NCBI GenBank assembly: GCA_000381625.1 | Contig: KB906767.1 | Location: forward strand, 1,404,629 to 1,468,628 | Length of the DNA stretch: 64,000 nucleotides | Origin: Bryobacterales bacterium KBS 96 | Lineage (GTDB): Bacteria; Acidobacteriota; Terriglobia; Bryobacterales; Bryobacteraceae | Direction: 5' to 3' | Shown here: positions 1,481 through 43,498 of the stretch, one piece after another | Numbering within the stretch: position 1 is the first letter of the stretch | Layout: every line of letters begins with the position of its first letter | Made by a program: the position numbers and the translations under genes | The notes under the pieces: generated by a model | Seen by the model: the letters and a program-made list of their open reading frames with translations, nothing else | What the model was told of the DNA's origin: nothing | The model's database searches: none

Positions 1481-2317
1481 TTACCTGGTTTCACCGGGGT
1501 GATATCCAGTTTCAGCAGTTGCCAAAGGAATGCTCTTCTCGGGCTTTTCCAGGAAGTGTTTAACGATTGGGACCACCCTCTCCGATTCCGAAAACAGGAC
1601 GAAGTGGCTGCCGGACGGAATCACGGCGAGTTCGGCGTTGGGGATGAGCTTGACGGTTTCAACCGTGTGCTCAAGGCGGACAAAATCGTGATCTCCGAGA
1701 ATTATGAGAATCGGCGCCTTGATTGAAGCCAACTCTTCGTTCGAAAATCCTTCCCACTGAATGCTTCCAAGCTTGTCAAAGATTTTGGGCCAGTAGTTTG
1801 GATCAGGAGCCACTTTCTCGTAGTTTTCTCTCTGAAATTGAATGTTCCTGGAACCGGCGGTAGGCGGGCGGTCAAAATGCGTTGTCTCGGAATTTAAGGC
1901 AATCTGCGGAGGGCCAAAGGTTGCTCCGTAGGTCACCACACGACGGACAAGCTCGGGGTAGCGAATTGCGATCATGGCCGCTGCATTGCCGCCGTAACTC
2001 TCGCCAAAGAAGTCGGCCTTTGAGATTCCAAGATATTTCAACAAACCGACCACGTCTTCGGCATATTGCTCGATGGAGAGCGGACGTTCCGGAATATCCA
2101 GCGTGCGACCATGCCCTTGGAGATCGACGGTAATGATCCTATGGCTTTGCATCAGCGCGGGGTACGAATTGAGTCCGGCGTATCCAAAGGCGGGAGGGAT
2201 ACAAACCAGCGGATCGCCAGTTCCCTGAATTTCGTAATACATCTTCAGGCCGTTAACAGGCGCGTATCCCTGGGCTGCGGTGGTTTTGATGTTGAGCCTG
2301 ATTTCGTGAGTCGCCAG
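1481..2317 (-). CDS. Alpha/beta hydrolase, probable CTG start
   Basis: An alpha/beta-hydrolase-fold enzyme. The nucleophile elbow is GESYGG (Ser in FFGESYGGNAA), the acid is the Asp in ILGDHDFV and the catalytic His is in PSGSHFVLF. The oxyanion region is near CIPPAFGYAG. The first ATG (2242) would cut off the conserved first strand: the frame upstream still encodes GYAPVNGLKMYYEIQGTG, typical of this family. No ATG, GTG or TTG lies between there and the previous stop, but a CTG at 2317 sits 8 bases after AAAGGA, so it is proposed as the start (278 aa). It is the last gene of an ArsR-SRPBCC-SRPBCC-hydrolase operon, 18 bases after the previous gene. Substrate unknown. If CTG is not used, the protein is 253 aa. 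Confidence 0.85.
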   Translation of the reverse strand: MATHEIRLNIKTTAAQGYAPVNGLKMYYEIQGTGDPLVCIPPAFGYAGLNSYPALMQSHRIITVDLQGHGRTLDIPERPLSIEQYAEDVVGLLKYLGISKADFFGESYGGNAAAMIAIRYPELVRRVVTYGATFGPPQIALNSETTHFDRPPTAGSRNIQFQRENYEKVAPDPNYWPKIFDKLGSIQWEGFSNEELASIKAPILIILGDHDFVRLEHTVETVKLIPNAELAVIPSGSHFVLFSESERVVPIVKHFLEKPEKSIPLATAETGYHPGETR

Positions 2318-2335
2318 ATTGTTGTTCCTTTCAGC

Positions 2336-2908
2336 TCACCGATTGCGAAATTCAGATTGCTGATACATCATGTTTTGCTTGCTCCAGTCAATCGGGCCAT
2401 CGGTGAATCGCTTCTCAAGCCTGCCCATCAGCTCGCTCCAGCCGCGTTGAAAGTGTGCATACGCCTGGTCCCATTCCGCTCCCTTCTTCCAGCCGAGATG
2501 AGTAATGGCCACATGAGTCCTGTACGAGTCAATCGGACGCATCTCAACAACAACCCACGTGCCGCCGTTTCGCACCTCGGGGAATTGCGGCGGAGCATTC
2601 CATTGGAATGAAATCATCTCCTCGGGCGCGTAGCTGAGGATCTTGAGTCCTTTTGTGCCAGATCGTTCATCATTCGGATCGAACTGGATTTCATAAGATC
2701 CGCCGATCGCAAGTTTGATATCGGCCTTTTGGGCGAAAAACTCCTCTGCGCCTTCGGACGTGGTGAATACGCGCCACACGTCGGACACCGGCGCGTTCAC
2801 GTCGCCTTCCACGCGAACCATTCGCCCGAGGCCGGGTAGCTTCTGCCCAGGCAAAGGAGATGCCAGAGCTACTACTACAAGAAAAGGGACAATATGCGCG
2901 AATCTCAT
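2336..2908 (-). CDS. Exported SRPBCC (AHSA1/START-like) protein
   Basis: A 190-residue protein of the SRPBCC superfamily, Aha1-like branch, which forms a hydrophobic-ligand cavity. After a hydrophobic leader (residues 1-21, MRFAHIVPFLVVVALASPLPG) the domain starts with VRVEGDVNAPVSDVWRVFTTSEGAEEFFA and continues through GGSYEIQFDPNDERSG and FQWNAPPQFPEVRNGGTWV to a C-terminal helix HFQRGWSELMGRLEKRF. The leader sets it apart from its neighbour and suggests a periplasmic location. It lies 9 bases after the preceding SRPBCC gene, in the operon headed by the ArsR-type regulator. Ligand unknown. Confidence 0.88.
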   Translation of the reverse strand: MRFAHIVPFLVVVALASPLPGQKLPGLGRMVRVEGDVNAPVSDVWRVFTTSEGAEEFFAQKADIKLAIGGSYEIQFDPNDERSGTKGLKILSYAPEEMISFQWNAPPQFPEVRNGGTWVVVEMRPIDSYRTHVAITHLGWKKGAEWDQAYAHFQRGWSELMGRLEKRFTDGPIDWSKQNMMYQQSEFRNR

Positions 2909-2917
2909 ACGTTCTCC

Positions 2918-3370
2918 TCACTGCTTCAAAACGATCTCCCCGGTTTCGAGTAAGGACTTCAGATTGGAGAGAATACGCGGCCAGCCGCCGGACACTGCCT
3001 GAATGAGCTTTGACTCCGTGCGATCCATGGTGTGTGTGATCGTGAGTTTGACGGCATCCGATACCGGCTCAACCTCGATCGTGCAACGCGCAAAGCCTTC
3101 AGCCTTCAATTCCGGCCTGAGTTCGTGGCGCCACTTAAGCACAATCCGCTGGGGCGGGTCGAATTCGACAATTTCTCCGGCGTCCGTAACGCGCCCATCG
3201 GGATAAAGCATTTTCCATGGCGCTCCCGGTTTCCATTCGGTCTCAAAGTGTACGCCGAACCAGTATTCCTTCATGAAATCCGGATCGATCAGCGCCGACC
3301 ACAACCGCTCCGGGGTTGTGCGAATGAACGTCACATACACAAAGGTGCTTTCGTCCTTTTTACTCTGCAT
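2918..3370 (-). CDS. SRPBCC (AHSA1-like) domain protein
   Basis: A 150-residue cytoplasmic SRPBCC protein of the Aha1/START-like group. Motifs: FVYVTFIRTTPERLWSALID at the N-terminus, FMKEYWFGVHFETEWKPGAPW, YPDGRVTDAGEIVEFDPPQRIVLKW, and a C-terminal helix ending GGWPRILSNLKSLLETGE. Members like this are almost always encoded next to ArsR-family regulators; here the start overlaps the ArsR gene by 11 bases, so the two are translationally coupled. Exact ligand or reaction unknown. Confidence 0.9.
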   Translation of the reverse strand: MQSKKDESTFVYVTFIRTTPERLWSALIDPDFMKEYWFGVHFETEWKPGAPWKMLYPDGRVTDAGEIVEFDPPQRIVLKWRHELRPELKAEGFARCTIEVEPVSDAVKLTITHTMDRTESKLIQAVSGGWPRILSNLKSLLETGEIVLKQ

Positions 3371-3689
3371 CTTGTTTTTCCAACCTCTTCTTGAGTTTTG
3401 AGAGCGCGCTCAGGCGCGGCCGTTCGAACTTGCTGATCCAGCGTTCCGCGATGTCGTTGATGGGCACGGGATTGATGAAATGACGTCTCTCGCGGCCCTG
3501 GCGCTTCCACGACACTAAATTTGCCCGTTTGAGAATCGCGAGGTGCTTAGCGACAGCTTGACGCGTCATATCGAGGCCCTCGCACAGCTCTCCGAGTGTT
3601 TGCCCATTTTTCTCGTGCAGGCGGTCAAGGAGTTTTCGACGGCTTCGATCCGCCAATGCCTTAAAAACGGCGTCATCTTGCATCTCCAA
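3360..3689 (-). CDS. ArsR-family winged-helix transcriptional regulator
   Basis: A winged-helix repressor of about 109 residues. The DNA-recognition region is LGELCEGLDMTRQAVAKHLAILKRANLVSWKRQGRERRHFINP, typical of the ArsR branch paired with SRPBCC proteins; no metal-binding ELCVCD motif is present, so it is probably not a metal sensor. It heads a four-gene operon. The start is ambiguous: TTG at 3689, or ATG at 3683, which has GGAG touching it. A very good sigma-70-type promoter with a palindrome in its spacer lies just upstream, which suggests autoregulation. Confidence 0.9.
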   Translation of the reverse strand: MEMQDDAVFKALADRSRRKLLDRLHEKNGQTLGELCEGLDMTRQAVAKHLAILKRANLVSWKRQGRERRHFINPVPINDIAERWISKFERPRLSALSKLKKRLEKQDAE

Positions 3690-3719
3690 TAGAGAACCAC
3701 GCAGTTACCTATAAGTCAA

Positions 3720-3749
3720 ATTATATGGAACCTTTTGGTTCCGTGTCAA
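3720..3749 (-). promoter_or_regulatory. Promoter with palindromic operator for the ArsR operon
   Basis: Read on the minus strand, a consensus TTGACA (3744-3749) and TATAAT (3720-3725) are separated by 18 bases. The spacer contains the palindrome GGAACC-AAAA-GGTTCC (3727-3742), placed where a bound repressor would block RNA polymerase. It lies 31 bases upstream of the ArsR gene and also just upstream of the divergent HxlR remnant, so either regulator could be the binder. Confidence 0.75.
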
Positions 3750-3844
3750 GTGATTTGTCGAAGGATGGCCTCTGTGTGTATGACTTTCCCGGAGAGAGTT
3801 TCCGACGACGGTACGTGGCGAACTCAAGCGACCATGGAAGGCAT

Positions 3845-4233
3845 ATGCCGGTTTCCCAAAAAAAGAGGTTTCGCCTTCCGATCGACTCGATGCTGTCGAT
3901 CATCGACGGGCGCTGGAAAGGCTCGATCTTATGGAGGCTGCTTAGCAGCCCGATGCGAACCAGCGAATTGAGGCGAAGCATATCAGAGATCACGGAGCGG
4001 ATGCTGATCCGCCATCTGCATGAAATGGTGGAAGACGGGATCCTTTTGAGGCACGACAAAAAACAGTACCGCCGCACGTCAGGTATTCGATCTCACCATA
4101 TGGCATGACGTTCGCGCCGGTGCTGGAGAAGATCTGTGAGTGGGGGCGGAAACACCAAGCCCGGGTCAAAACGAAGACGAGCAACAGGACACAGTTGCCT
4201 GTCCCACGCGGTTGGGGTTCGATATTGATTTGA
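3845..4233 (+). pseudogene. HxlR-family regulator, frameshifted
   Basis: The frame from ATG 3845 (further ATG at 3725) gives LPIDSMLSIIDGRWKGSILW, SSPMRTSELRRSISEITERMLIRHLHEMVEDGILLRHDKK, the winged helix of HxlR regulators. At about 4060-4072, near the run cgacaaaaaacag, the family sequence jumps to another frame: VPPHVRYSISPYGMTFAPVLEKICEWGRKHQ, ending at TGA 4231-4233. A single-base indel in the A-run therefore splits an otherwise well-conserved gene. It faces the ArsR operon across the palindromic promoter region. A sequencing or assembly error in the homopolymer is the main alternative. Confidence 0.8.
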
Positions 4234-4387
4234 ACGCCGAGCTTAGTTCACAATATCCTTATGCTTACCGGGGCATCCCGTCCGCGGAAATGGGCTCAGC
4301 CCACCGGCCATCTCTTTCCTCAAAGATTGAACCTCACTTCCTGCCCGACATGATGCGGACAACGGGCACATTACAGGAGGTAAGGTT

Positions 4388-5644
4388 ATGCCTACAGTAT
4401 CTCGGAGGTTGCCTGAGCGACCTCATCTCGAAGTCCCGAAGCGCGAGGCGCGCGAACTTCTCAACCAATGGCGGAATGGCAAACGGGAGGCGTTTGAACG
4501 AATACGCCGCCGGCATCCAAGATTCGCGAACGGCGACGACTCAGTCCTGGCTGCGGGTCCCTTTCGTCTCAGCGACGCTCAACTCGTCATCGCGCGCGAG
4601 TATGCTTTCGCCCACTGGGCCGAACTGAAGCAGCGGATAACCGCCAACTCATTGGCGAGGGCATTGGAAACGGCAATCCGCGCGAACGATCGGGACGCCG
4701 CCGTACGGTTGATTCAAATGCGCCCCGAACTGCTGCATCTCCCCGTCATCAGCGGAAACTGGGGACCACCGATGAGCCACGCGGCCAACCTCGGCCGGTT
4801 GGAAATCGTCCAGGCCATGGCGGCGCTGGGTGCGCGAGATTTCCAGCACGCCTTCGACCGCGCCTTGCTTCAGGGGCGGATCGAGTGCGCGCGCTGGCTC
4901 CATGGACATGGCGCTCGAGTCGCGCCGGGTCTAATCATGGGAGCATGTGAAACGCTGAATCCCGCCGGCGTCCGTCTTCTGGTCGAGTTGAATGCGCCGC
5001 TCACTGATGGGCGCGGCGATCGTCTCGCTCCACTAACGCTGGTGCTGGAAACCTACGCCAGGAATCCCCGGGGGAAGCACGAGATTCTCGAACTCTTCGC
5101 GCAATGCGGCTATGACCTGCCAGACACACCGATGATGGCGTTTCATCGCGGAGACGTTTCGCAATTGGAAAAACACCTTCGGCGCGACACGAAGTTGCTC
5201 GAGCGCAGGTTTACGCTGGGCGACGTTTATCCATCGGAGTGCGGCTGCGCGAACGATGGCCGGTCCGGCATGCACTGGACTCCGATTGACGGGTCCACAC
5301 TGCTCCACCTCGCGGTCGATTTCCGGGAGCGCGAGATCTTCGATTGGCTACTCGCGCGCGGCGCGGATGCCAATGCGCGTGCCGCACTCGATGGCGATGG
5401 CTTCGGCGGACACACGCCGCTGTTCAATGCGATCGTTTGTGGCCCATGGCCCGACATGGGGATGACCGGCACGCTGTTGCAGCGCGGCGCGAGGAGAGAT
5501 GCCCGGGCGAGTTTACGAAAGTTCCTCGACTGGATTGCGAATCCGCATTGGTATGAAGCTCGCGATGTGACCGCCGCCGAGTGGGGCCGCGGATTTCCGG
5601 AAGCAGGTTGGGTCAACACGGAGGCCCTGCGGCTTTTCGATTAG
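4388..5644 (+). CDS. Ankyrin-repeat protein
   Basis: A 418-residue protein with a strong ribosome site (ACAGGAGGTAAGGTT before the ATG). The N-terminal 80 residues are basic and helical (KREARELLNQWRNGKREAFERIRRRHP, then FAHWAELKQRI). From about residue 85 to 400 there are ankyrin-type helix pairs: PMSHAANLGRLEIVQAMAALGA, FDRALLQGRIECARWLHGHGA, STLLHLAVDFREREIFDWLLARGADANAR, TPLFNAIVCGPWPDMGMTGTLLQRGA. No signal peptide or membrane segment, so probably cytoplasmic. Ankyrin domains bind proteins; partner unknown. It has no clear operon partner. Confidence 0.85.
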   Translation: MPTVSRRLPERPHLEVPKREARELLNQWRNGKREAFERIRRRHPRFANGDDSVLAAGPFRLSDAQLVIAREYAFAHWAELKQRITANSLARALETAIRANDRDAAVRLIQMRPELLHLPVISGNWGPPMSHAANLGRLEIVQAMAALGARDFQHAFDRALLQGRIECARWLHGHGARVAPGLIMGACETLNPAGVRLLVELNAPLTDGRGDRLAPLTLVLETYARNPRGKHEILELFAQCGYDLPDTPMMAFHRGDVSQLEKHLRRDTKLLERRFTLGDVYPSECGCANDGRSGMHWTPIDGSTLLHLAVDFREREIFDWLLARGADANARAALDGDGFGGHTPLFNAIVCGPWPDMGMTGTLLQRGARRDARASLRKFLDWIANPHWYEARDVTAAEWGRGFPEAGWVNTEALRLFD

Positions 5645-5659
5645 TCAAGCTGTTCCTTA

Positions 5660-5992
<333 letters not shown>

Positions 5993-6122
5993 TAGGTCTC
6001 AAGTGTTTGCAGCGTTGCTCACGGTTGCGATAAATTGCTCGTTATCAATAGCCTTCGGCAGCACCATAGCGAGAGCGAAGTGCATGAACGCTCAGGATTG
6101 CGCATTGTTTTGAAGCAGAGTA

Positions 6123-6140
6123 CCCACAAAAGTCCCCACA
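6123..6140 (+). repeat. 18-bp repeat shared by both ends of the island
   Basis: CCCACAAAAGTCCCCACA, also present at 21843-21860, near the other attachment copy. In one frame both copies encode VPTKVPT inside otherwise different short open stretches (here VPTKVPTLVPPEAGW). I infer both come from the tail of related integrase genes, but an integrase arm-binding site is possible too. Confidence 0.5.
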
Positions 6141-6160
6141 TTGGTCCCGCCTGAAGCGGG

Positions 6161-6690
6161 GTGGCCCACCCCAAATCGAGCAGCCCCGACTACACGGCAA
6201 TCATCGACGCTGTCGCAAGACGAGAAAAAGCCCGATTTCTTTCGGATGGAATTACAGTGGCCAGCCAACTAGGGCTTACCGATGCAGTGCCGGCGAAGGT
6301 CACTGTTCACATTGATGCCCGGCTGCGCCCATTCACCTTGACAGACTCACAATCGACTTCAAACCGACCGCTCCGAGCCGCCTTTATTGGGCGGGCCGGC
6401 CGGCTATGCGCATCATTCAGGCGCTTCATTGGCTTCACGACATGCTTCCGGCAGACGACGATTCAATCCTCAAGCGGATCAGGAAAATTCTGGATGACCC
6501 AAAACAAGGAAAGGCGATTCAGGACGATCTTCGCAGCGGTCTCGATGCCTTACCAGTGTGGATGCGTGACCTGGTGACCAGACTTCTTCGCAGTGCGGAC
6601 CAATCGAATGCCGCCACTCGTAAAAACGTCTCCTCATCTACGTGTACGACGAGATCAGTCGCGGATGATCACTTAACCAGGCGGCCGTGA
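6161..6690 (+). pseudogene. DUF6088 / AbiEi-like antitoxin, truncated and frameshifted
   Basis: Remnant of a DUF6088 protein, the antitoxin-like partner of AbiEii nucleotidyltransferases (type IV toxin-antitoxin or abortive-infection system). Frame 1 gives SPDYTAIIDAVARREKARFL, then SDGITVASQLGLTDAVPAKV; at about 6340 one base is missing and the protein continues in another frame as DRLTIDFKPTAPSRLYWAG, RPAMRIIQALHWLHDMLP, KAIQDDLRSGLDALPVWMRD. The N-terminal DNA-binding half is absent, cut by the island edge. The next gene is the matching toxin remnant. Confidence 0.72.
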
Positions 6691-7194
6691 TGAATCCCGG
6701 TTTCTCTGAGTTTCTTAGAGCTGCACCGCGGGACCGCCGTGACGTGTTCCTCGGCGCTGCAACTCGACTCGGAGCCCCGGCACAGAACGTCGAAACAAGA
6801 CTTCTGGGTCACTTGGACGCTCAATGCACTTTTCAATGGCCTCCCCGCTGGCCATCCGCGTTTTCTCTTCAAGGGAGGAACCTCATTGTCGAAAGCCTAT
6901 GGGTTGATCTCTCGGTTTTCTGAAGACATCGATATTACTGTCTTTATTACTGTCTTTCGCGAGGACATCGGACAAGCAGCTTCCGTAAAGGAACTCGAAT
7001 CTCTGAGCCGAAAGAAGCGCCAAGCAAGACTGGATGCAATTAAGGATACTCGCCGCCGGTATATCCAGAACACGCTGGCGCAGCAATTTGAGGAGCTTGT
7101 TCAAAGTACGCTCGGCGAATTGAACATCGAGATGAACGATCCTAGCGTGGTCGTTGACCCTGCGGGAACAACGATCTCGCCATCCCGTTCGTAG
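6690..7194 (+). pseudogene. AbiEii-like nucleotidyltransferase toxin, degraded
   Basis: The diagnostic AbiEii motif is present: FLFKGGTSLSKAYGLISRFSEDIDIT, i.e. the nucleotidyltransferase GG-T/S-x-K core plus the catalytic D-x-D. The N-terminus (MNPGFSEFLRAAPRDRRDVF) is in a different frame, so one base has been gained near 6793. A 12-bp tandem duplication (6934-6957, attactgtcttt twice) inserts ITVF right after the catalytic DID. The C-terminal half ends abruptly after NIEMNDPSVVVDP. With three independent lesions the toxin is surely dead. It follows the DUF6088 remnant, as in intact AbiE operons. Confidence 0.75.
6934..6957 (+). repeat. 12-bp tandem duplication inside the AbiEii remnant
   Basis: Two perfect adjacent copies of ATTACTGTCTTT. 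It keeps the frame and adds four residues beside the catalytic Asp pair, so it looks like a replication-slippage event. Confidence 0.9.
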
Positions 7195-7305
7195 TTGTAT
7201 TCGATGGCCGCTACGACGGGCGCTTTGACCGCCGTGCTGGCAGCCCGTAGGGTCAAAAAACTCGTAAGGGGTTCAGAACTGCTGATTTGAGAAGATGCAA
7301 CGTGG

Positions 7306-8375
7306 ATGAAGGGTCGTCAATGGGCACGGGTTCTGGCGTACGTGAGTGGGCTGGTCAATCAGGAGTTGCTTCTGCAGGTCGAGTATCTTGCCGCCGAGAA
7401 TCGAATCCTTAGGGCACATTTGCCAGATCGCCTACGGCTGACCAACGAGGAGCGCTCCACGCTCGCGGAAATCGCCAGACGTCTCGGCCGAAAAGGTCTC
7501 GAGAAAGTTGCCGCTGTCGCCCGACCGGATACGATTCTGGGCTGGTTCAGGAAGCTCATCGCTCAGAAGTTTGATGGCTCGAAGTATCTCCTATCCAGGC
7601 AAGCCGGCTACGAGTCCTGAACTTGTCGGCCTGATCGTTCGCCTTGCCCGGGAGAACTCCAGCTGGGGATACGATCGCATCGCTGGTGCGTTGAGCAATC
7701 TCGGCCACAAAGTCTCAGATCGATCTGTCGGCAGCGTTCTTCGCCGGCACGGCATCGCCCCGGCTCCCAAGCGTACCAAACCACCGCATGGAAGGACTTC
7801 ATCGCCGCGCACATGGCTGTGATTGCAGGCATGGACTTCTTTACGGTTGAGATCCTCGCCTGGCGAGGGCTGATCACCTATTACGTTTTGTTCCTCATCC
7901 AACTGGAGACAAGAAGAGTCATGCTTGCCGGCGTTACTCGACACCCTACAGAAGAATGGATGGAACAAGTTGGGCGCAACCTGACGGATTCCGAATCCGA
8001 CACACTCGGTCACCAACGGTTTCTCCTGCATGATCGTGATGCGAAGTTCTGCTCGGGCTTCAGATCCATCTTGCTCAACTCAGGGTTGCAGCCACTCACA
8101 CTTCCGGCCCGTCCCCGAATCTGAATGCGTTTGCCGAAAGATGGGTTCGATCCGTGAAACAGGGGTGCCTGTCGAAGCTGATCTTATTCAGCGAGGCATG
8201 CCTGAAGAAAGTTCTAGCTGACTATCTTGCGCATTATCACGCTGAACGAAATCATCAGGGCAAGCGCAACCTCCTCCTCTTCCCTGTCCCGGCTGATGCA
8301 GGTCCACGCGGTTCACCGGTTGTTCGCAAGCAGCGTCTCGGCGGCTTGCTCAAGTACTACACAAGGGCTGCATGA
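7306..8375 (+). pseudogene. Integrase-core (DDE) IS transposase, multiply frameshifted
   Basis: A transposase of the integrase catalytic-core type (about 350 aa when intact) is spread over several frames. Pieces in order: MKGRQWARVLAYVSGLVNQE with ENRILRAHLPDRLRLTNEER (7306-7617); SPELVGLIVRLARENSSWGYDRIAG (to about 7800); AGMDFFTVEILAWRGLITYY and FLLHDRDAKFCSGF (7813-8120), which carry the first and second Asp; then the Glu-containing region and ADYLAHYHAERNHQGK at the C-terminus (8154-8375). At least three frame changes make it inactive. It separates the AbiE wreck from a PQQ-enzyme fragment. Confidence 0.8.
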
Positions 8376-8535
8376 TTTCTTTGACCAAACGGGCACAACC
8401 GGCGACATATTATGGTGCTTCCAGACAAACCAAAGCTGGAGAGCCTCGCCCATGAGCTACGAATTTGATGGGCAGCAATACATCGCGGTGACAGCCGGCG
8501 CAAACATCATGTCGTTCGGTCTGGCGCCTCAGTAA
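8376..8535 (+). pseudogene. C-terminal fragment of a PQQ-dependent dehydrogenase
   Basis: The last 50 or so residues of a quinoprotein beta-propeller remain: TGDILWCFQTNQSWRASPM followed by SYEFDGQQYIAVTAGANIMSF and a stop. This matches the final tryptophan-docking blade of PQQ alcohol dehydrogenases (usual length 550-700). Everything upstream has been replaced by the transposase remnant, so this is debris. Confidence 0.7.
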
Positions 8536-33466: not shown

Positions 33467-34129
33467 TCATGCCACTTGTTTGCTTGCGATTTTCTCCGTG
33501 TCTGAAGAACGGTTTTCTGCGCACCTGGACCGAATGGTTGCTTCCGGCACGCCGAGCTGTTTGGCGATCTTGCGCCAGCTTAGTCCTTCCCCACGCATCC
33601 GAATCGCTTCATCAACGCGGAAGATGTTCTTTGGGCGACCGATTGGAAGATTCTTTCCGGACTTGCTCCGGGCGCGGCCCGCGGCGTGTTCTGCTTGGTA
33701 TCGCTTTACACCGGCATTTACCCGTTCGTTGATCATGTCTCGCTCAAACTGAGCGAAGACCTGCAGCATTCCGAGCATCGCCCGCCCCATTGGGTTAGAG
33801 TCGTCCGTGTCGAGTCCCTGCGTTGTGCAGATGAAACGAACACCGGCAGATGCGAGCTCCTGCATCGTGATCACGCTATCTGCCAGGCTTCGGCCCCATC
33901 GATCGAGTTTCCAGACGAGGACTGCATCGACATGACGGGCGCGGACATGATTCATCAGCTTGTCCCGGCCAGGGCGTGAGGACTGCGTCCCAGAAATCGT
34001 ATCAATATACTCGCCGAAAACATGCCAGCCTCGGGTGGCGCAATATTGTCGCAGCTCGGCGACCTGCATCTGGCAATCCTGATCGCTCGTCGAGACACGT
34101 GCGTAAATCGCTGCCCTGATTGTGCTCAC
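33467..34129 (-). CDS. Serine recombinase (resolvase/invertase type)
   Basis: A 220-residue small serine recombinase. Catalytic N-terminal domain with the nucleophile Ser in AAIYARVSTSDQDCQMQ, LVWKLDRWGRSLADSV (conserved Arg), DSNPMGRAMLGMLQVFAQFERDMINERVNAG (long E helix). A short C-terminal HTH follows: SWRKIAKQLGVPEATIRSR. It could resolve cointegrates or invert DNA. The upstream small gene overlaps it by four bases, so the two form one unit. No flanking resolution sites were identified by eye. Confidence 0.93.
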   Translation of the reverse strand: MSTIRAAIYARVSTSDQDCQMQVAELRQYCATRGWHVFGEYIDTISGTQSSRPGRDKLMNHVRARHVDAVLVWKLDRWGRSLADSVITMQELASAGVRFICTTQGLDTDDSNPMGRAMLGMLQVFAQFERDMINERVNAGVKRYQAEHAAGRARSKSGKNLPIGRPKNIFRVDEAIRMRGEGLSWRKIAKQLGVPEATIRSRCAENRSSDTEKIASKQVA

Positions 34130-36264: not shown

Positions 36265-37131
36265 TTGGTGGTCCCCTTGGAATTAGTTAGGCTTACGGCG
36301 TTGACGACTCGCACCAAGGGAAATCCTGATGTGCGCATAGGTCTCATAGATGGGCCTGTGTTTGCCGAACACTCCGATCTAGCGGGCAGTCGCCTCAGCT
36401 ACGTCAGCGCAACGGACGGAGCCACATGCAGACGGACCAGTAGTATGGCGTGCGCGCACGGTACGTTTGTGGCGGGCGTATTAGCCGCCAATCCGAGTTC
36501 TGTCGCGCCTGGTATTTGCCCCGGCTGTACTCTCCTGATTCGCCCCATTTTTCCCGAGACGACTTCCGATCGCAATCACATGCCCAGCGCTACGCCAGAG
36601 GAGCTTGCTGCGGCCATCCTCGAGTGTGTTGATGCCGGCGCGCGAGTTATCAATTTAAGCCTTAACCTCGCGCAACCTTTCTCCAAAGGCGAACAGGCGC
36701 TGGAAGACGCGTTTAGTCAGTGCGTCAGGCGCGGCGTCATCATCGTTGCGGCTGCCGGTAATCAGGGTGCCGTAGGCAGCTCCGCGATTACGCGTCATCC
36801 TTGGGTGATCTCGGTTGTCGGATGCGACTCGCAGGGCAGACCCACCGCGGAGTCAAACCTCGGCAGTTCCATTGGCAGATACGGGCTGGCCGCGCCGGGG
36901 GAAAACATCGTGAGTCTCGGGCCAGACGGGAAGCCCGTAACATTTAGCGGCACCAGCGCCGCCGCGCCGTTCGTAACGGGGGCGATCGCGTTGCTCTGGT
37001 CGGAGTTCCCCAGAGCCACCGCTGCTCGAATCAAATTAGCCGTCACGCAATCGGCAAAGCGGGAGCGCAGGACCATCGCTCCGCCCTTGCTGGACGCTTG
37101 GTCGGCATATGCGGCCATGAGCAGGAATTAG
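36265..37131 (+). CDS. Subtilisin-like (S8) protease, PatA type
   Basis: A 288-residue S8 serine protease without signal peptide or propeptide, so probably cytoplasmic. Catalytic triad: D29 (VRIGLIDGPV), H65 (CAHGTFVAGVLAANP), S231 (SGTSAAAPFVTGAIALLW); oxyanion N166 in VAAAGNQG. The compact form beginning LELVRLTALTTRTKGNPDVR resembles cyanobactin-maturation proteases of the PatA/PatG family rather than secreted subtilases. It heads a plus-strand cluster with a small CxxC protein, a PatG-like protein and a Cys-rich protein, so it may cleave the leader of the Cys-rich protein. Start is TTG 36265 or GTG 36268; no strong ribosome site. Confidence 0.88.
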   Translation: MVVPLELVRLTALTTRTKGNPDVRIGLIDGPVFAEHSDLAGSRLSYVSATDGATCRRTSSMACAHGTFVAGVLAANPSSVAPGICPGCTLLIRPIFPETTSDRNHMPSATPEELAAAILECVDAGARVINLSLNLAQPFSKGEQALEDAFSQCVRRGVIIVAAAGNQGAVGSSAITRHPWVISVVGCDSQGRPTAESNLGSSIGRYGLAAPGENIVSLGPDGKPVTFSGTSAAAPFVTGAIALLWSEFPRATAARIKLAVTQSAKRERRTIAPPLLDAWSAYAAMSRN

Positions 37132-37148
37132 TTTCGGGAGACAGAGCT

Positions 37149-37361
37149 GTGAAGAAATACAGCGCAGTCGAAAAAGACAAGAGTGCAGGCCCGGATCATC
37201 GCGTACGGCTTCCGGGATTTTTGATCGAAGAAGAGGTCGGCCTCGGAGACCTCATCAAGAAGACGACCTATGCTATGGGCGTCAAGCCGTGCAGCGGCTG
37301 TGAGAAGCGAGCTGCTGCGCTAAACCGCTGGATGACCTTCTCACGTCGACCACAGAAATGA
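37149..37361 (+). CDS. Small CxxC protein of the protease locus, copy 1
   Basis: A 70-residue protein with GTG start behind GGGAGACAGAGCT. The core is VRLPGFLIEEEVGLGDLIKK then TTYAMGVKPCSGCEKRAAAL and NRWMTFS. The CxxC pair in KPCSGCEKRA could bind metal or serve as a redox pair. A second copy (40604-40810) is 60-70% identical by eye and lies beside the second Cys-rich gene. The gene sits between the S8 protease and the PatG-like gene. Its LPGF sequence echoes the LPxFS leader of the Cys-rich proteins, but I cannot show a link. Confidence 0.75.
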   Translation: MKKYSAVEKDKSAGPDHRVRLPGFLIEEEVGLGDLIKKTTYAMGVKPCSGCEKRAAALNRWMTFSRRPQK

Positions 37362-37382
37362 TTTGGTTCCAGGAGGAACACA

Positions 37383-38330
37383 ATGGACCAACCGCAGAAC
37401 AGAATTCAAGAGCAAACCGTAATCGCATCTCCGGTTCAGGAGGATCGCCCTGCGCCCGTTACGTCTTCGGTCGAGTCGGCGGCCCATACCGTTTTCCCTC
37501 AGTCTTGCGGTGCGGCCGCCGCCGCGACCGCGCCGGTCGCCAACGGAGGAGCGCCACGCTCGCCGTCCTGGATCTATGCCATCGGCAAAATTGAGGCACG
37601 CTTCCCCAGCGTCTCTGTAGAGAAGGAATTCGCCCAAGCAGCAGGGCGGGCCGACACCAAGACTCAAACCGATCGCCAGGCATTCCACGCCACACTCTCC
37701 AAACCGGAGAACCGCTACCTGGGCCGCCAGCTTTGTTTCGTCATGACGATCGAGGGAATGGAGACCTATATCGTGGTGCCGCGTGATGCGTCCGACTTGG
37801 GCCTGCTGATCGACGCCGTTCGGCCCAATCCCAGCCCGTTGGACCTTGACGTGTTGATCGGCATAAAGGGGCCTGTGGCCCCGCCTCAGATGTGCAACGG
37901 TTTAATGGTTCCCATTGTCGTTTTCGACCAGATTTACTCCTTCGATCGCGAGGCTCTGATTAAGGCGATTCCTAAGCCCGAGAAAGCTTCTGCTCAGGAG
38001 TTCGTTCCCGCGGCCGAAGAACTGTTCGATCGCATCATGCAGATGACCGACAACGCTGGGGCCACGAATGAACATCGCGCGTTGAATTACTTGGCAGTCC
38101 GGTATCAGGCCATTTATGCAAAGGCTGCCGAGGCCTTCGCCAACAACGCTTCACTCACTGCGGTGGATGTTGTCCCCTCGTCCATGAACGGCACGCGCAA
38201 CATGGTTAATGTCATTTTCTCCTACACCAACCGTAAAACGGATGTGACGGAGAAATTCTTCTGTCGGGTTGACGTGACCGACGAGTTTCCATTCATGGTG
38301 AAAAAACTTTCGCCGTACTACGATCGATGA
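37383..38330 (+). CDS. PatG-like C-terminal-domain protein
   Basis: A 315-residue protein behind an excellent ribosome site (CAGGAGGAACACA). The first 60 residues are low complexity (Ala/Pro/Val/Thr). The rest resembles the non-protease C-terminal region of PatG-type cyanobactin proteins: PSWIYAIGKIEARFPSVSVE, RYLGRQLCFVMTIEGMETYI, VVPRDASDLGLLIDAVRPNP, MVPIVVFDQIYSFDREALIK, then a helical and beta C-terminus (NEHRALNYLAVRYQAIYAKA). It lacks the subtilase domain, which the upstream S8 gene provides separately. Its biochemical role in cyanobactin pathways is not settled, perhaps scaffolding or substrate handling. Confidence 0.7.
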   Translation: MDQPQNRIQEQTVIASPVQEDRPAPVTSSVESAAHTVFPQSCGAAAAATAPVANGGAPRSPSWIYAIGKIEARFPSVSVEKEFAQAAGRADTKTQTDRQAFHATLSKPENRYLGRQLCFVMTIEGMETYIVVPRDASDLGLLIDAVRPNPSPLDLDVLIGIKGPVAPPQMCNGLMVPIVVFDQIYSFDREALIKAIPKPEKASAQEFVPAAEELFDRIMQMTDNAGATNEHRALNYLAVRYQAIYAKAAEAFANNASLTAVDVVPSSMNGTRNMVNVIFSYTNRKTDVTEKFFCRVDVTDEFPFMVKKLSPYYDR

Positions 38331-38397
38331 TTGCTAAAGCCTGGTTGGGCTCTCACCCTGCCCTGAGCGGTTCGGCTAACGAGAAAGGATTTGGAAC

Positions 38398-39249
38398 ATG
38401 GCGCTTCCGAGATTTTCCGGCGAGGCTTCGCTTTACAAGACGAATGCATTCTACAGAGGCCATGCCTCAGTCCCACAAGGGCCGCCGCCGAGTGGATTGG
38501 TCGTTCCCGCATATCGCCCTCTCCCTGTTACTCAAGCAGATTGTGATTATTGCAACGAGGGGTGTGACAACGGTTACGAGGGCTGTAATGCACTACTCAC
38601 ACCACTTACGTTCGCTTGCCCCTTTTTCCCTCCGGCATGTGCTGCCCTAGCAGCGGGGCAATTGGTATGCGATGGTGAGTACGCTGGATGCCGTTCGTAT
38701 TGCTTGCTAGGGCATTGTTGTCCCAAGGTCTGCGGCTTTCCAGATCCGTTGCATCCGGGTTTAGGTTGCTGCGAAAGTGGAGAGCACTGTGTGGACGAGA
38801 ATGATCCCAATTCACGCTCTGGGTGCTGTCCGAGTGATCGATCCGTATGTGGTGGCAAGTGTTGCAATTCAGGAGAAGTCTGCGTTGGGGATTTCTGCTG
38901 TCCTGCTGACGCGACAACGGTTTGCAATGGAGTCTGCTGCACCGGCTCCTGCACTCCGGGAGGAGAGTGTTGCCCATCTCCGAGCCATGTGTGTGGCAAT
39001 GACTGTTGCCCTCCCTTTAACAAGTGCTGCAACGGACAGTGCTGCGGAGCTTACCAGCAATGTGATCCGACGCTTGGAATATGCACGAATCCGCCTCCAC
39101 CGCCGCCGGCCAGTTGCCCACCCGGGTCTGCGCCCTGCGGTATCCCTGACAACACTGGGGTGATACGAACTTGTTGTCCTCCTGGATTGATGTGCTGTAA
39201 CTATACGCCTGAATTTGGACCAGAATGCAAGACATCGTGCCTGCATTAG
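38398..39249 (+). CDS. Cysteine-rich protein with leader-like N-terminus, copy 1
   Basis: A 283-residue protein with about 46 Cys (16%). The N-terminal 45 residues lack Cys and start MALPRFSGEASLYKTNAFYR; the rest is built of CC-x-CC knots such as CCPSDRSVCGGKCCNSGEVC and CCPSPSHVCGNDCCPPFNKC. No typical signal peptide, so the leader is not a Sec signal; it shares LPxFS-x3-SLY-x-T-x-N with the second Cys-rich protein at 39474. Probably a substrate of the nearby S8/PatG-like protease pair, or a disulfide-rich surface protein. The ribosome site is AAAGGATTTGGAAC before the ATG. Confidence 0.8.
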   Translation: MALPRFSGEASLYKTNAFYRGHASVPQGPPPSGLVVPAYRPLPVTQADCDYCNEGCDNGYEGCNALLTPLTFACPFFPPACAALAAGQLVCDGEYAGCRSYCLLGHCCPKVCGFPDPLHPGLGCCESGEHCVDENDPNSRSGCCPSDRSVCGGKCCNSGEVCVGDFCCPADATTVCNGVCCTGSCTPGGECCPSPSHVCGNDCCPPFNKCCNGQCCGAYQQCDPTLGICTNPPPPPPASCPPGSAPCGIPDNTGVIRTCCPPGLMCCNYTPEFGPECKTSCLH

Positions 39250-39299
39250 TATCAAGCGGCAGAGGATCACGTTACAATTCGAATGGCGACAGCCGAGTG

Positions 39300-39473
39300 A
39301 CTTGCAGGTCGGGTGCGCTGGCCTTGTTATGGTCCGGATTTCCCGCGGCAACAGCGGCGCAGGTCAAAGCCGCCGTGATAGATGTCACGCGTCCCAGGCC
39401 TCCCACGATAGTCCCTCCGCTTTTAAATGCGCGGCCAGCATATCAGCTTCTGCTTGCAAGGAGCCGCGGGTAG
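39300..39473 (+). pseudogene. C-terminal fragment of a second S8 protease
   Basis: The plus strand encodes SGALALLWSGFPAATAAQVKA then PPTIVPPLLNARPAYQLLLARS and a stop. This aligns with the end of the S8 protease at 36265 (TGAIALLWSEFPRATAARIK; RTIAPPLLDAWSAYAAMS). The nucleophile Ser and all catalytic parts are missing. It shows that a second protease copy existed here and was destroyed. Confidence 0.8.
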
Positions 39474-40358
39474 TCAACATGGATTACAAGCCTTGTCGCG
39501 GCAGTACCAGCCTTTTGGACATGTACCGACAAAAGCGCCCTGTTGATATTTCTTGCAATTTTGGAGACCAGGGATCTTAGTACAGTCGCAGAAACCGCCG
39601 GTGCAAACCGCCCCTTGCCTGCACACCTTGCCGCAAGAGCCGCAATTCCCGGGGTCCGAGTTCAGGTCGGCACACTTATCCCCGCAATCCGTTAAGCCGG
39701 CCTGGCATTGACACACTCCGTTGATGCATTGCCTTTTGGCGGGGCATACGATTCCGCATGCACCGCAATTAGCGGAGTCCGAACTCAGGTTCGCACAGTA
39801 TCCGGAGCACCCCGCTTCCCACGGTGCGCAGCAGAGGCCACGATCGCAATGAAAACCTCTTGGGCAGGGCGGAAGCTGTTGGCAGTCAATCTGGTCCAAG
39901 TAATGGTAATAATCGGCACGGCTCATGCAAAGTCCATACGCACCGAAATCTTGAGGACTGGCACCAACAGAAAGGCTGATCGTGCAAAGTTCACGCATTC
40001 TAGAATAGGTCTGGTCGGCGCGGGTCAAGCATTCGAATTTTATGTCGTCGCACGCGAGGGTCTGAGCCGCCGGCCCCTGAATCGGGTTTGGCCGCGTGAA
40101 CGCTAGCGTAACGGCTATCCCGGTTTTCCAATCGTTCGTGGAGGCACCAGTGAAGTCGTATTCGACCGCTTCCACGATGTGACTATGCGGGACCGACCGC
40201 GGTTCATCAATTCCTGCTGGCTCAAGGTGCAAATGGGGAGCGACTGCAGGAGGATCACCTCGGCGGGGAGCATTCATCATTGCGCCAGGTAACGTAGCCA
40301 GATAAGAATTTTTCGTTCGGTACAGCGAACGGAGAGCGGAAAATCCTGGAAGACCCAT
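39474..40358 (-). CDS. Cysteine-rich protein with leader-like N-terminus, copy 2
   Basis: A 294-residue protein with about 30 Cys. Start is ATG 40358, 9 bases after GAGAGG (a TTG at 40364 is also in frame). The leader reads MGLPGFSALRSLYRTKNSYL. Residues about 60-150 form a beta-rich globular part (DWKTGIAVTLAFTRPNPIQG); the C-terminal half is a Cys-repeat region (CSGYCANLSSDSANCGACGIVC, DCGDKCADLNSDPGNCGSCGKV). The leader matches copy 1 and the upstream bases are conserved too. Convergent with copy 1 on the other strand. Function unknown. Confidence 0.8.
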   Translation of the reverse strand: MGLPGFSALRSLYRTKNSYLATLPGAMMNAPRRGDPPAVAPHLHLEPAGIDEPRSVPHSHIVEAVEYDFTGASTNDWKTGIAVTLAFTRPNPIQGPAAQTLACDDIKFECLTRADQTYSRMRELCTISLSVGASPQDFGAYGLCMSRADYYHYLDQIDCQQLPPCPRGFHCDRGLCCAPWEAGCSGYCANLSSDSANCGACGIVCPAKRQCINGVCQCQAGLTDCGDKCADLNSDPGNCGSCGKVCRQGAVCTGGFCDCTKIPGLQNCKKYQQGAFVGTCPKGWYCRDKACNPC

Positions 40359-40531
40359 TTCCAAATACCTCTCAAATCGGCAATCGCAACGACGGTTGGT
40401 ATGAATTCATTCCTGGTTGCTCTGGTGCCGGCAGACGTTACGCTGATCGACGTGTCCTTATCCGCCTTAGAACCGGTGTTGGGGGCAGCGCCCTCGGCGG
40501 CTGTCGCCCCCTTCAAATCCGTGTGCTCCAT
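40277..40531 (-). CDS. Short Ser/Ala/Thr-rich frame before Cys-rich copy 2, doubtful
   Basis: A frame of up to 84 codons from ATG 40531 begins MEHTDLKGATAAEGAAPNTG and overlaps the Cys-rich gene by over 80 bases. It stands where the PatG-like gene would be in the plus-strand copy of the locus, and its first 50 residues have a similar low-complexity character, so it may be the stump of a deleted PatG-like gene. No ribosome site of quality. Confidence 0.3.
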   Translation of the reverse strand: MEHTDLKGATAAEGAAPNTGSKADKDTSISVTSAGTRATRNEFIPTVVAIADLRGIWKWVFQDFPLSVRCTERKILIWLRYLAQ

Positions 40532-40603
40532 AAGAATCTTCGCCCTTCCCTTAAGGTCACTTGCGGATGCGGACAAACGAGTTCTTGTCCCACGCGATTG
40601 GAT

Positions 40604-40810
40604 TCATCGCGAGAAGACCGTCCAGCGGTTGAGAGCGGCAGCACGCCTCTGGCAGCCAGCGCAGGGTTTGATCCCCATCGAGTAGGTGATCCGCTTGATG
40701 GCATCGCCGAGACCGACCTCTTGTTCTCTATCAATCAGGAACCCGGGGAGCCGAACCACATGGGGCTGCCGTTCGGTACTCTCCGGTCGCGCTTCATTCT
40801 TTTTTCCCAC
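40604..40810 (-). CDS. Small CxxC protein of the protease locus, copy 2
   Basis: A 68-residue protein, GTG 40810 behind AGGAGGTCCTGGCC. Core: VVRLPGFLIDREQEVGLGDA, IKRITYSMGIKPCAGCQRRA, AALNRWTVFS. It is a clear paralogue of 37149-37361 and has the same CxxC and LPGFLI blocks. Here it is upstream of the second Cys-rich gene, in the reverse orientation, so the locus contains an inverted partial duplication. Confidence 0.78.
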   Translation of the reverse strand: MGKKNEARPESTERQPHVVRLPGFLIDREQEVGLGDAIKRITYSMGIKPCAGCQRRAAALNRWTVFSR

Positions 40811-42176: not shown

Positions 42177-43088
42177 GTGAGAGCGTACAGCGCATCCAGC
42201 GAAGAAGCTCTGCGCGCCCGCAATCTACTGAACGACTGGGCCGGCGAAGGTTTCCTCACTGAAGCGCAGTACCAGCGCATGGAACAGGAAACAGTCTGTG
42301 AACTCCACTGCACCAACATTTTCCTGCGGCTCGTCTTGTTCCTCTTTACCCTGATCATCGTGGGCGCCGCCGTCGCGCTGTTTTTTGTGGTTTTTGTCTC
42401 GCAACCGGCGGCGCAAACCACAGGCATTTTCCTGCTGATCTTCGCTGCCATCTCATATGCGACCGCCGAATTCGCTGTTTCGCGGGCCCGGCTCTATCGC
42501 TACGGGATCGAGGAAGCCCTCGCCGCCTGCTCGGTTGGCTTTCTCTGCGCGGGAATGCAGGCCGCTTTGTTCAGCGGTCGCCCTTATTCGCCGAAGCCGG
42601 ACGGAATGGAATTCCTGGTTCCCACCGCCGGCGCCATCATTTCGCTCTGGATATGGCGTCGCTTCGGGCTCCCCTATGCCTTTCTCGCCGCGATGATCTT
42701 CGTCCTCTGGGCGCCAGGCTACTGGACGTCGTCCCATTCGCTGCAGCATCTGATCGTCGCGGCGTTCTACGCAGCCGGCCTGATAACCGTGGCCGCAGTA
42801 CGCTCCCGCAACCGGTTCGCGTACCTCAACGACGGGTATTCGATGGTCGAAGCGCTCCTCTGGATCGGCATCTACCTGGCGATCAACCTCCAGCTTTCGT
42901 CGGTGGACCTGCTTGGGCGGTGGTGGGGTGGCCCTCGGACCACCACCGGATTCTCGAGGACGTTCTACTGGGCCACCTGGCTGCTGATCTGGTGCCTGCC
43001 ACCCGCCGTACTGTGGGCACATCCCGATCGCGTGCCCCTTTGCCCTGGCGCACGCGAATCACCATGCGTTGGCTGTCAATATCACTAA
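42177..43088 (+). pseudogene. DUF2157-like multi-span membrane protein, C-terminus lost
   Basis: From GTG 42177: a soluble start (RARNLLNDWAGEGFLTEAQYQRMEQETVC) and then about eight membrane spans (FLRLVLFLFTLIIVGAAVALFF, TGIFLLIFAAISYATAEF, FLVPTAGAIISLWIWRRF, AMIFVLWAPGYW, AFYAAGLITVAAV). This layout is that of DUF2157-type inner-membrane proteins. At about 43018, after PPAVLWAHP, sequence similarity ends and the frame runs antisense through a recombinase fragment, so the C-terminus has been replaced by an insertion or deletion junction. Confidence 0.65.
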
Positions 43089-43498
43089 CCTTGAGACGAA
43101 CGACCTCGGCACGGCGCAACCCTGTGCCGTATAGAATCATCAAAATCGTTCGATACAGCAGATTCGGCGCCGCTTCGATTAGTTGAGTGACTTCTTCATG
43201 ACTCAGCACGACGGGAGTTTTTTCGGCGTCTTCGGAAACACCCGATCGTCGAACACCAGATCGCGCCGCTTCAAAACCTTCTTGAAGAGAAAGCGCAAAG
43301 CCGAAATCCGAATCTCGACCGTACCGGGCGCCAACTTTTTTGGAGAAGATGGACTTGATAGTGCCGCAATTCTTCGGCACTCATCTGCTCTGGAGACTTG
43401 TTGTAATGTTCGGCAAACTCTCGCACAGCGAAAATGTAGCCGGGAATCGTTTCAGAAGAATAATTTCGACGCTGAAGTTCCTCCAACATCGTCGGCAA
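43018..43498 (-). pseudogene. Tyrosine recombinase (integron/XerC-like), broken
   Basis: Minus-strand recombinase pieces in several frames. The N-terminal core-binding part is MLEELQRRNYSSETIPGYIF then AVREFAEHYNKSPEQMSAEE; the middle KKLAPGTVEIRISALRFLFKK; the catalytic start TPVVLSHEEVTQLIEAAPNL, ILYGTGLRRAEVVRLKVSDI (first Arg), ending at GKGARDRDV. The His/Arg box and Tyr are missing. Its cut end coincides with the cut end of the membrane-protein gene at about 43018. Confidence 0.75.

What the first reader, a model, noticed from the sequence alone, without database searches (positions are those of the whole stretch)
36265..40810. Candidate PatA/PatG-type protease locus acting on cysteine-rich proteins
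Seen: an S8 protease with triad D29/H65/S231 and no signal peptide, a separate PatG-C-like protein, two copies of a 70-aa CxxC protein, and two proteins with 46 and 30 Cys. Known: cyanobactin PatA and PatG are S8 proteases that cut leaders from precursor peptides; PatG also has a C-terminal region like the one here, but in cyanobactins the protease and this region are fused. Inference: the split set matures or exports Cys-rich proteins in a soil bacterium. I am not aware of a described system with this combination.
Basis: partly seen in the sequence, partly recalled or inferred. Interest (0 to 1): 0.88.

Follow-up and report, generated by a model that had tools for sequence, protein, structure and literature searches.

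The report
Split PatA-type protease and tagged precursors
A soil bacterium carries a three-gene protease cassette related to the enzymes that make cyclic peptides in cyanobacteria, and in most of the many bacteria where we found this cassette it sits beside small cysteine-rich proteins that share one N-terminal 'address tag', which points to an undescribed, mobile system for trimming a changing set of secreted-type mini-proteins.

Summary
[quoted passage not shown] AF2 model matches PatG-DUF 4uvq). Two Cys-rich proteins follow. The S8-CxxC-DUF trio recurs in about 10 phyla with tandem or remote ORFs bearing the tag (M)xPGFTAEASLYKTxxxY, a second box VxPQ/A at a fixed distance (P to P 30-32), then a variable body with usually an even Cys count. 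In the own genome the tag occurs only in these two proteins. Over 666 genomes, 27 of 30 with the split DUF have the tag against 3 of 636 without (p ~ 1e-41); cyanobacteria with only the fused, cyanobactin-type protein have none. No YcaO, oxidase, macrocyclase or transporter is conserved. Best reading: a split PatA-type leader protease recognises the tag, cuts after VxPQ (RSII-like) and releases disulfide- or metal-rich mini-proteins. Cleavage, the DUF's role and the cargo's fate are inferred. It is not a cyanobactin pathway.

The parts
36265..37131 (+). S8 subtilase, PatA-like, 288 aa, triad D29/H65/S231, N166; no prodomain or signal peptide seen; start TTG 36265 or GTG 36268
   Evidence: PF00082 1e-30; nearest solved structures PatA/cyanobactin N-terminal proteases 3zxx, 3zxy, 4h6v, 4h6w; D/H/N/S kept in relatives, D-H spacing 36
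37149..37361 (+). 70-aa CxxC protein, 'RLPGFLIEEEVGLGDLIKKTTYAMGVKPCSGCEKRAAALNRWM'; probable partner or adaptor
   Evidence: lies between S8 and DUF in most relatives; P22, F24, GLGD, PCxxCxxR invariant in 29 sequences
37383..38330 (+). Stand-alone PatG/PatA 'DUF' protein (PatG_D + PatG_C), 315 aa; residues 1-52 predicted disordered
   Evidence: PF18047 1e-30, PF18065 8e-34; AF2 pLDDT about 95 for 60-315; Foldseek top hit 4uvq PatG DUF E 4e-14, TM(target) 0.75; ribosome site AGGAGG before ATG
38398..39249 (+). Tagged cargo 1: 283 aa, 46 Cys
   Evidence: tag E 1.1e-7, one of only two significant tag sites in the genome
38404..38454 (+). Box A (tag) of cargo 1: LPRFSGEASLYKTNAFY
38500..38511 (+). 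Box B of cargo 1, VVPA: presumed cleavage motif, P to P spacing 33
   Evidence: sequence; box B statistics
39309..39443 (+). Remnant of a second S8 gene (C-terminal part only, no catalytic residues)
   Evidence: tblastn 55% identity to S8 residues 238-282, E 5e-11
39474..40358 (-). Tagged cargo 2: 294 aa, 30 Cys, STIG1/MXAN_6577-like body
   Evidence: tag E 4.0e-7; PF04885 3e-6; NF041328 6e-18, below cut-off
40302..40352 (-). Box A (tag) of cargo 2: LPGFSALRSLYRTKNSY
40236..40247 (-). Weak box B candidate of cargo 2, AVAP (P to P spacing 37, longer than usual)
   Evidence: sequence only
40604..40810 (-). Second CxxC protein, intact, 62% identical to the first; beside the S8 remnant it suggests a decayed second cassette
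33470..34129 (-). Serine recombinase (resolvase) flanking the cassette
   Evidence: PF00239 1e-43
42886..43498 (-). Broken tyrosine recombinase (integrase) flanking the cassette
   Evidence: PF00589 4e-14 and PF13495 1e-10 in two overlapping frames

Best explanation
A split, PatA-type leader-processing cassette. The cytoplasmic S8 protease works together with the separate PatG-DUF protein and the CxxC protein. They recognise a family of otherwise unrelated precursors by an N-terminal tag (box A, xPGFTAEASLYKTxxxY) and cut after a second box about 30 residues further on (VxPQ/A, in the place and form of the cyanobactin RSII site G(L/V)E(A/P)S). This removes a leader of about 35-40 aa that lacks Cys and frees a variable body with usually an even number of Cys, probably a disulfide- or metal-stabilised secreted-type mini-protein. 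One cassette serves precursors next door and elsewhere in the genome. SHOWN: homologies, conserved trio, shared bipartite leader, genome-wide co-occurrence, specificity for the split over the fused form. INFERRED: cleavage and its site, DUF and CxxC acting in recognition, disulfides, release outside the cell.
For: S8 nearest PatA proteases (133 bits) rather than PatG macrocyclase (62 bits). DUF by HMM and fold. 62 named loci, S8 upstream in nearly all. Neighbour clustering finds only S8, CxxC, DUF and tagged ORFs broadly conserved. Jack-knife: a tag matrix trained on Acidobacteriota finds 104 tags within 5 kb downstream on the same strand in 47 other loci (41 positive), 0 on the opposite strand, 9 elsewhere. 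Own genome: two significant tag sites, both here. Co-occurrence: Terriglobia 8/11 vs 2/288, Nitrosomonadaceae 16/16 vs 1/109, cyanobacteria 3/3 vs 0/239, pooled p 1.8e-41. Tagged genes far from the trio in Nitrosospira. Box B in 56/84 non-redundant leaders vs 11 in shuffles, spacing mostly 30-32; Cys 0.4% in the first 30 aa vs 12% after 40; even Cys in 69/84, p 1e-9. Out of sample: tagged, unannotated ORFs beside the trio on Sinorhizobium, Mesorhizobium and Streptomyces plasmids. PatA cuts after G(L/V)E(A/P)S: PMC10885120.
Against: No cleavage product, expression or phenotype data. Isolated PatG-DUF did not bind PatE by ITC/NMR (PMC4259220), so a leader-docking role is not supported in the cyanobactin case (PatA-DUF was not tested there). 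One third of leaders lack a clear box B, and the box in cargo 2 here is weak. No exporter or oxidoreductase is linked. Three split-positive Terriglobia genomes have no tag at E <= 0.01 (two of these, G181 and G084, have tag-like ORFs by eye right after the DUF gene).
Confidence: 0.74

Rival explanations
1. A protein-export or sorting system: the tag is a non-Sec export or localisation signal, and the S8/DUF/CxxC set is its signal peptidase and chaperone, working with a host exporter encoded elsewhere.
For: One tagged body is a phospholipase A2 (PF00068 2e-9), a normally secreted disulfide enzyme. A related Cys-rich body in a genome without PatG_C starts with a Sec-like signal (L181). Tagged proteins mostly have even Cys numbers.
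Against: No transporter is conserved beside the trio. S8 and DUF carry no signal peptide. Not exclusive of the best explanation.
Confidence: 0.35
2. A protease-activated toxin or defence/competition system: the leader keeps toxic bodies inactive until the protease cuts.
For: Hypervariable tandem cargo, patchy mobile distribution on plasmids and beside recombinases, and a phospholipase A2 cargo whose animal relatives are made as zymogens (own knowledge).
Against: No immunity genes seen; PADLOC gives only generic subtilase matches and nothing for DUF, CxxC or cargo; most cargo have no known family.
Confidence: 0.2
3. A divergent cyanobactin pathway giving heterocyclic or macrocyclic peptides.
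For: Shared S8 and DUF homology.
Against: No YcaO in the genome; no PatG-type S8 or oxidase in the locus (D-H spacing 36 leaves no room for the macrocyclase insert); split S8 form their own 100/100 group apart from PatA and PatG types; no tagged protein matches TIGR03678 or TIGR04446, though control cyanobactin precursors do.
Confidence: 0.04
4. Tagged proteins are not substrates: they are partners or regulators co-transcribed with the protease, and the tag is a binding site without cleavage.
For: No cleavage data; the CxxC protein also holds an LPGF box with invariant P and F and could bind the same surface.
Against: Bodies are hypervariable while the leader is constant, a precursor pattern; tagged genes also lie remote from the trio; box B matches the PatA-site form at a fixed distance.
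Confidence: 0.15

Closest known systems
Cyanobactin maturation proteases PatA / PatG (TIGR03895) and the PatG DUF (PDB 4uvq)
   Same: S8 domain closest to PatA; DUF of the same fold and Pfam families; precursor with N-terminal recognition motif, fixed-distance cleavage-type box and variable core
   Different: S8 and DUF are separate genes, with a CxxC gene between them; separate 100/100 S8 group; other tag; Cys-rich bodies, whole precursors 60-440 aa; no YcaO, oxidase, prenyltransferase or macrocyclase conserved
Stand-alone fused S8-DUF proteins with 'LPxQxxPVxR' small proteins (seen here in cyanobacteria and Acidobacteriota)
   Same: Same protease and DUF parts; small, often Cys-rich proteins with an N-terminal LPxQ box and a G(V/I)x(P/A)S box at fixed spacing 23
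   Different: Fused protein, no CxxC gene seen, different tag; the PGFTAE tag was not found in fused-only cyanobacterial genomes
RiPP leader-peptide proteases of the S8 family (NisP, ElxP, AmyP; review PMC10885120)
   Same: Subtilases that remove leaders from ribosomal precursors
   Different: Those act on lanthipeptides with known modification enzymes; no DUF or CxxC partner and no such tag described
MXAN_6577-like Cys-rich proteins (NF041328) and STIG1-like proteins (PF04885)
   Same: Body of cargo 2 resembles them
   Different: Score below the NF041328 cut-off; homologues in genomes without the trio have no tag
Type VII secretion mycosins (TIGR03921)
   Same: S8 similarity, 145 bits
   Different: Below cut-off 278.75; no T7SS genes seen, no signal peptide, no membrane anchor

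Membership tests
Cyanobactin biosynthetic cluster | PatA-type S8 protease | tested here: met
   nearest structures are PatA proteases; TIGR03895 S8 part 114 bits, below the whole-model cut-off 421
Cyanobactin biosynthetic cluster | PatA/PatG C-terminal DUF | tested here: met
   PF18047, PF18065; 4uvq fold
Cyanobactin biosynthetic cluster | S8 and DUF fused in one protein | tested here: not met
   separate genes here and in the relatives of the split group
Cyanobactin biosynthetic cluster | PatG-type macrocyclase S8 | tested here: not met
   single intact S8 with D-H spacing 36, split group apart from PatG type at 100/100
Cyanobactin biosynthetic cluster | YcaO heterocyclase (absent in some prenylated cyanobactins, so not strictly required) | tested here: not met
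   no PF02624 match in the whole genome; control genomes ring
Cyanobactin biosynthetic cluster | Precursor leader of TIGR03678/TIGR04446 type | tested here: not met
   none of 60 tagged proteins match; cyanobactin controls L157, L158 do
Cyanobactin biosynthetic cluster | RSII cleavage site G(L/V)E(A/P)S | tested here: inconclusive
   related box VxP(Q/A) at fixed spacing; cleavage not tested
RiPP (general) | Leader plus core in a ribosomal precursor | tested here: met
   constant bipartite leader, variable Cys-rich body
RiPP (general) | Enzymatic post-translational modification of the core | not testable with these tools
   no conserved modifying enzyme nearby; needs mass spectrometry
T7SS mycosin | TIGR03921 above cut-off | tested here: not met
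   145.5 vs 278.75 bits
Anti-phage subtilase systems (PADLOC) | System-specific partner proteins | tested here: not met
   only generic subtilase/IetS S8 matches; nothing for DUF, CxxC or cargo
MXAN_6577-like Cys-rich protein (NF041328) | Score above the curated cut-off | tested here: not met
   65 vs 100 bits

The most novel reading that the evidence does not exclude
A new, widely transferred class of leader-directed maturation for disulfide- or metal-rich mini-proteins without Sec signals, in which a stand-alone PatG DUF is the tag reader. By extension this gives a first function for the DUF that has been unexplained in cyanobactin enzymes: reading the N-terminal LP-x-(F/Q) box of precursors.
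Probability: 0.4. Interest if true: 0.9.

Novelty: new variant of a known kind. Interest (0 to 1): 0.83.

Why it matters
It would extend the PatA/PatG protease family from cyanobacterial cyclic peptides to about 10 phyla and to a new kind of product, with a tag that finds the products in any genome, including remote, unannotated small genes. It provides a natural separated DUF whose loss or mutation can be tested, making the open question of the PatG DUF's role (PMC4259220) directly testable. The cargo are diverse, unnamed Cys-rich proteins (one a phospholipase A2), candidates for new bioactive proteins.

Tried and rejected
Cyanobactin pathway: rejected (no YcaO, no macrocyclase, own S8 group). 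T7SS mycosin: strong S8 score but below cut-off. Defence system: only generic subtilase matches; no phage record holds the DUF protein. CxxC fold: AF2 only moderate (pLDDT 70) and Foldseek found nothing. Conserved transporter or modifying enzyme: none by clustering ORFs within 10 kb. Literature: no held paper contains the tag strings or the Pfam/TIGR accessions, and among the papers listed for PatG/cyanobactin none mentions Nitrosospira; subscription papers and preprints are not held, so prior description cannot be excluded. The alternative that the 'tag' is chance was tested by strand, jack-knife and genome-wide controls and rejected.

Full report
WHAT IS IN THE WINDOW. The window lies in a 6.69-Mb genome. 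The cassette reads S8 (36265-37131), CxxC (37149-37361) and DUF protein (37383-38330), closely spaced on the + strand, then a 46-Cys protein (38398-39249). Behind it come an S8 remnant (39309-39443), a 30-Cys protein on the - strand (39474-40358) and a second CxxC gene (40604-40810, - strand). The S8 has all four catalytic residues. The 315-aa protein matches both Pfam models of the cyanobactin DUF (PatG_D 1e-30, PatG_C 8e-34). It is modelled at pLDDT about 95 over residues 60-315, and its only significant PDB match is 4uvq, the PatG DUF. A serine recombinase and a broken integrase flank the region. The organism is inferred to be an acidobacterium of class Terriglobia, because sampled genomes of its class are named so in the public records.

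THE MISSED CLUE. Both Cys-rich proteins begin alike: MALPRFSGEASLYKTNAFY and MGLPGFSALRSLYRTKNSY. Their bodies are only weakly similar (26% over Cys-rich stretches).

THE SYSTEM ELSEWHERE. PatG_C is found in 14 of 299 genomes of the class, 11 of them split. A scan with the DUF alignment gave 62 named loci from Acidobacteriota, Nitrosomonadaceae, Gallionellaceae, Methylococcaceae, Acetobacteraceae, Nitrospirota, Planctomycetota (Brocadia), Cyanobacteriota, Chloroflexota, Actinomycetota, Thermodesulfobacteriota, Myxococcota, Zixibacteria and a Methanoperedens MAG (a MAG contig may be misbinned). S8 lies just upstream in nearly all and the CxxC gene in between in most. One to seven small ORFs with the tag (M)xPGFTAEASLYKTxxxY follow on the same strand. 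Actinomycetes have variants such as LPGATADYSLYRTRRHYR on proteins with 40-48 Cys. Clustering all ORFs within 10 kb shows no other broadly conserved gene.

IS THE TAG REAL? (i) A matrix trained only on acidobacterial tags found 104 sites in the 5 kb downstream of the DUF gene in 47 other loci, all on the coding strand, against 9 in the remaining, larger sequence; 41 of 47 loci were positive. (ii) In the window's own genome, six frames, only the two Cys-rich proteins match (E 1.1e-7, 4e-7; the next is 1.5). (iii) Terriglobia: 8 of 11 split-positive genomes have the tag, 2 of 288 others do, both weakly. (iv) Nitrosomonadaceae: 16 of 16 against 1 of 109. (v) Cyanobacteria: 3 of 3 split-positive, 0 of 239 others, although 14 of those carry fused PatA/PatG-type proteins; one further genome, G438, shows only a truncated open frame at a contig end and is counted as negative. 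Pooled Fisher p 1.8e-41; genomes are related, so this overstates independence, but the three clades agree. (vi) Out of sample, plasmids of Sinorhizobium mexicanum (2 ORFs), Mesorhizobium (2) and Streptomyces (1) carry the predicted tagged ORFs beside the trio, which is annotated only as 'S8 family serine peptidase' and 'hypothetical protein'. One row of the tag alignment A3 is a consensus that I wrote; the other 62 are natural.

ANATOMY OF THE CARGO. After removing near-copies, 84 tagged proteins show a second box V/I-x-P-Q/A in 56 (shuffles: 11 on average, at most 20), with the two prolines 30-32 residues apart in most. Cys makes up 0.4% of the first 30 residues and 12% after residue 40. The Cys number is even in 69 of 84 (p 1e-9). 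Bodies are almost all unknown to Pfam and NCBIfam; one is a phospholipase A2. In Nitrosospira and Nitrosovibrio, tagged genes with up to 24 Cys sit alone, far from the trio, among unrelated genes, so the cassette probably acts in trans. A homologous Cys-rich body in a genome without PatG_C has a Sec-like signal peptide instead, which fits a secreted-type cargo.

RELATION TO CYANOBACTINS. The S8 is nearest to the leader-removing PatA proteases, not to the PatG macrocyclase. Split S8 form one group apart from fused PatA and PatG types at 100/100; the tree is unrooted. Within the group, organisms are intermixed, which indicates horizontal transfer. While looking at fused proteins I found that stand-alone fused S8-DUF genes in cyanobacteria and Acidobacteriota lie beside small proteins with another N-terminal motif, LPxQxxPVxR, and a box G(V/I)x(P/A)S at a fixed distance of about 23 (15 of 19 hand-listed leaders; shuffles 0.3). 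The first motif is also in cyanobactin precursors (L157, L158; NILPQQGQPVIR of PatE, used in PMC5108345). The second has the form of the known PatA site G(L/V)E(A/P)S (PMC10885120). The VxPQ box of the split system has the same place and a similar form, and this is the basis for proposing it as the cut site.

MECHANISM. Shown: a conserved trio, a shared two-box leader, and strong genomic co-occurrence specific to the split form. Inferred: S8 cuts after box B; DUF and CxxC help recognise the leader (the CxxC protein itself has an LPGF box with invariant P and F); bodies fold with disulfides or metals; mature proteins act outside the cell. Against a simple leader-docking role for the DUF stands the lack of binding between isolated PatG-DUF and PatE (PMC4259220). 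PatG acts after the leader is removed, and PatA-DUF was not tested there.

NOVELTY. No held paper contains the tag or discusses these Pfam/TIGR models, and the genes are annotated as hypothetical. I file it as a new variant of a known kind (PatA-type leader processing), not as a cyanobactin.

Noticed in passing
L152, L154, L159-L162, L165 (cyanobacteria); L016, L017, L022 (Acidobacteriota): Stand-alone fused S8-DUF genes outside canonical cyanobactin clusters lie beside small, often Cys-rich ORFs starting M(K/R)LPIQAQPVxR with a G(V/I)x(P/A)S box at spacing about 23; L165 has about eight. They look like a second, fused branch of the same kind of system; the seven tested match no NCBIfam model.
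   Followed up: partly
L166 (G613) near 5358-6211 -; L059 11248-11655 +; L075 6457-6918 +: Fragments of the DUF gene lie just before individual tagged genes, as if [DUF 3' end + tagged gene] had been duplicated as a unit to multiply cargo genes.
   Followed up: no
L185 (Streptomyces NBC_01568 plasmid), 1497-8469: The S8-CxxC-DUF-tag cassette lies between a recombinase and a Tn3-family transposase; together with recombinase genes flanking the window cassette this suggests carriage by mobile elements.
   Followed up: partly
L079 10979-11575 +: A tagged protein in a Zixibacteria genome is a phospholipase A2 (PF00068 2e-9) with a Cys-rich C-terminal repeat (PCGVKxC).
   Followed up: partly
G410:C13:18373-18432 -: The only Nitrosomonadaceae genome with a tag (E 3e-5) but no PatG_C match; possibly a left-over cargo gene or an assembly gap.
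   Followed up: no
L088, L089 (Telluria, Massilia): Distant DUF proteins (35% identity) without S8, CxxC or tag nearby; they may be a further branch with another partner.
   Followed up: no
window 37149-37361 and 40604-40810; phrog_32048: The CxxC protein matches a phage protein family of unknown function (1.5e-6), so a related small PCxGC domain exists in phages.
   Followed up: no
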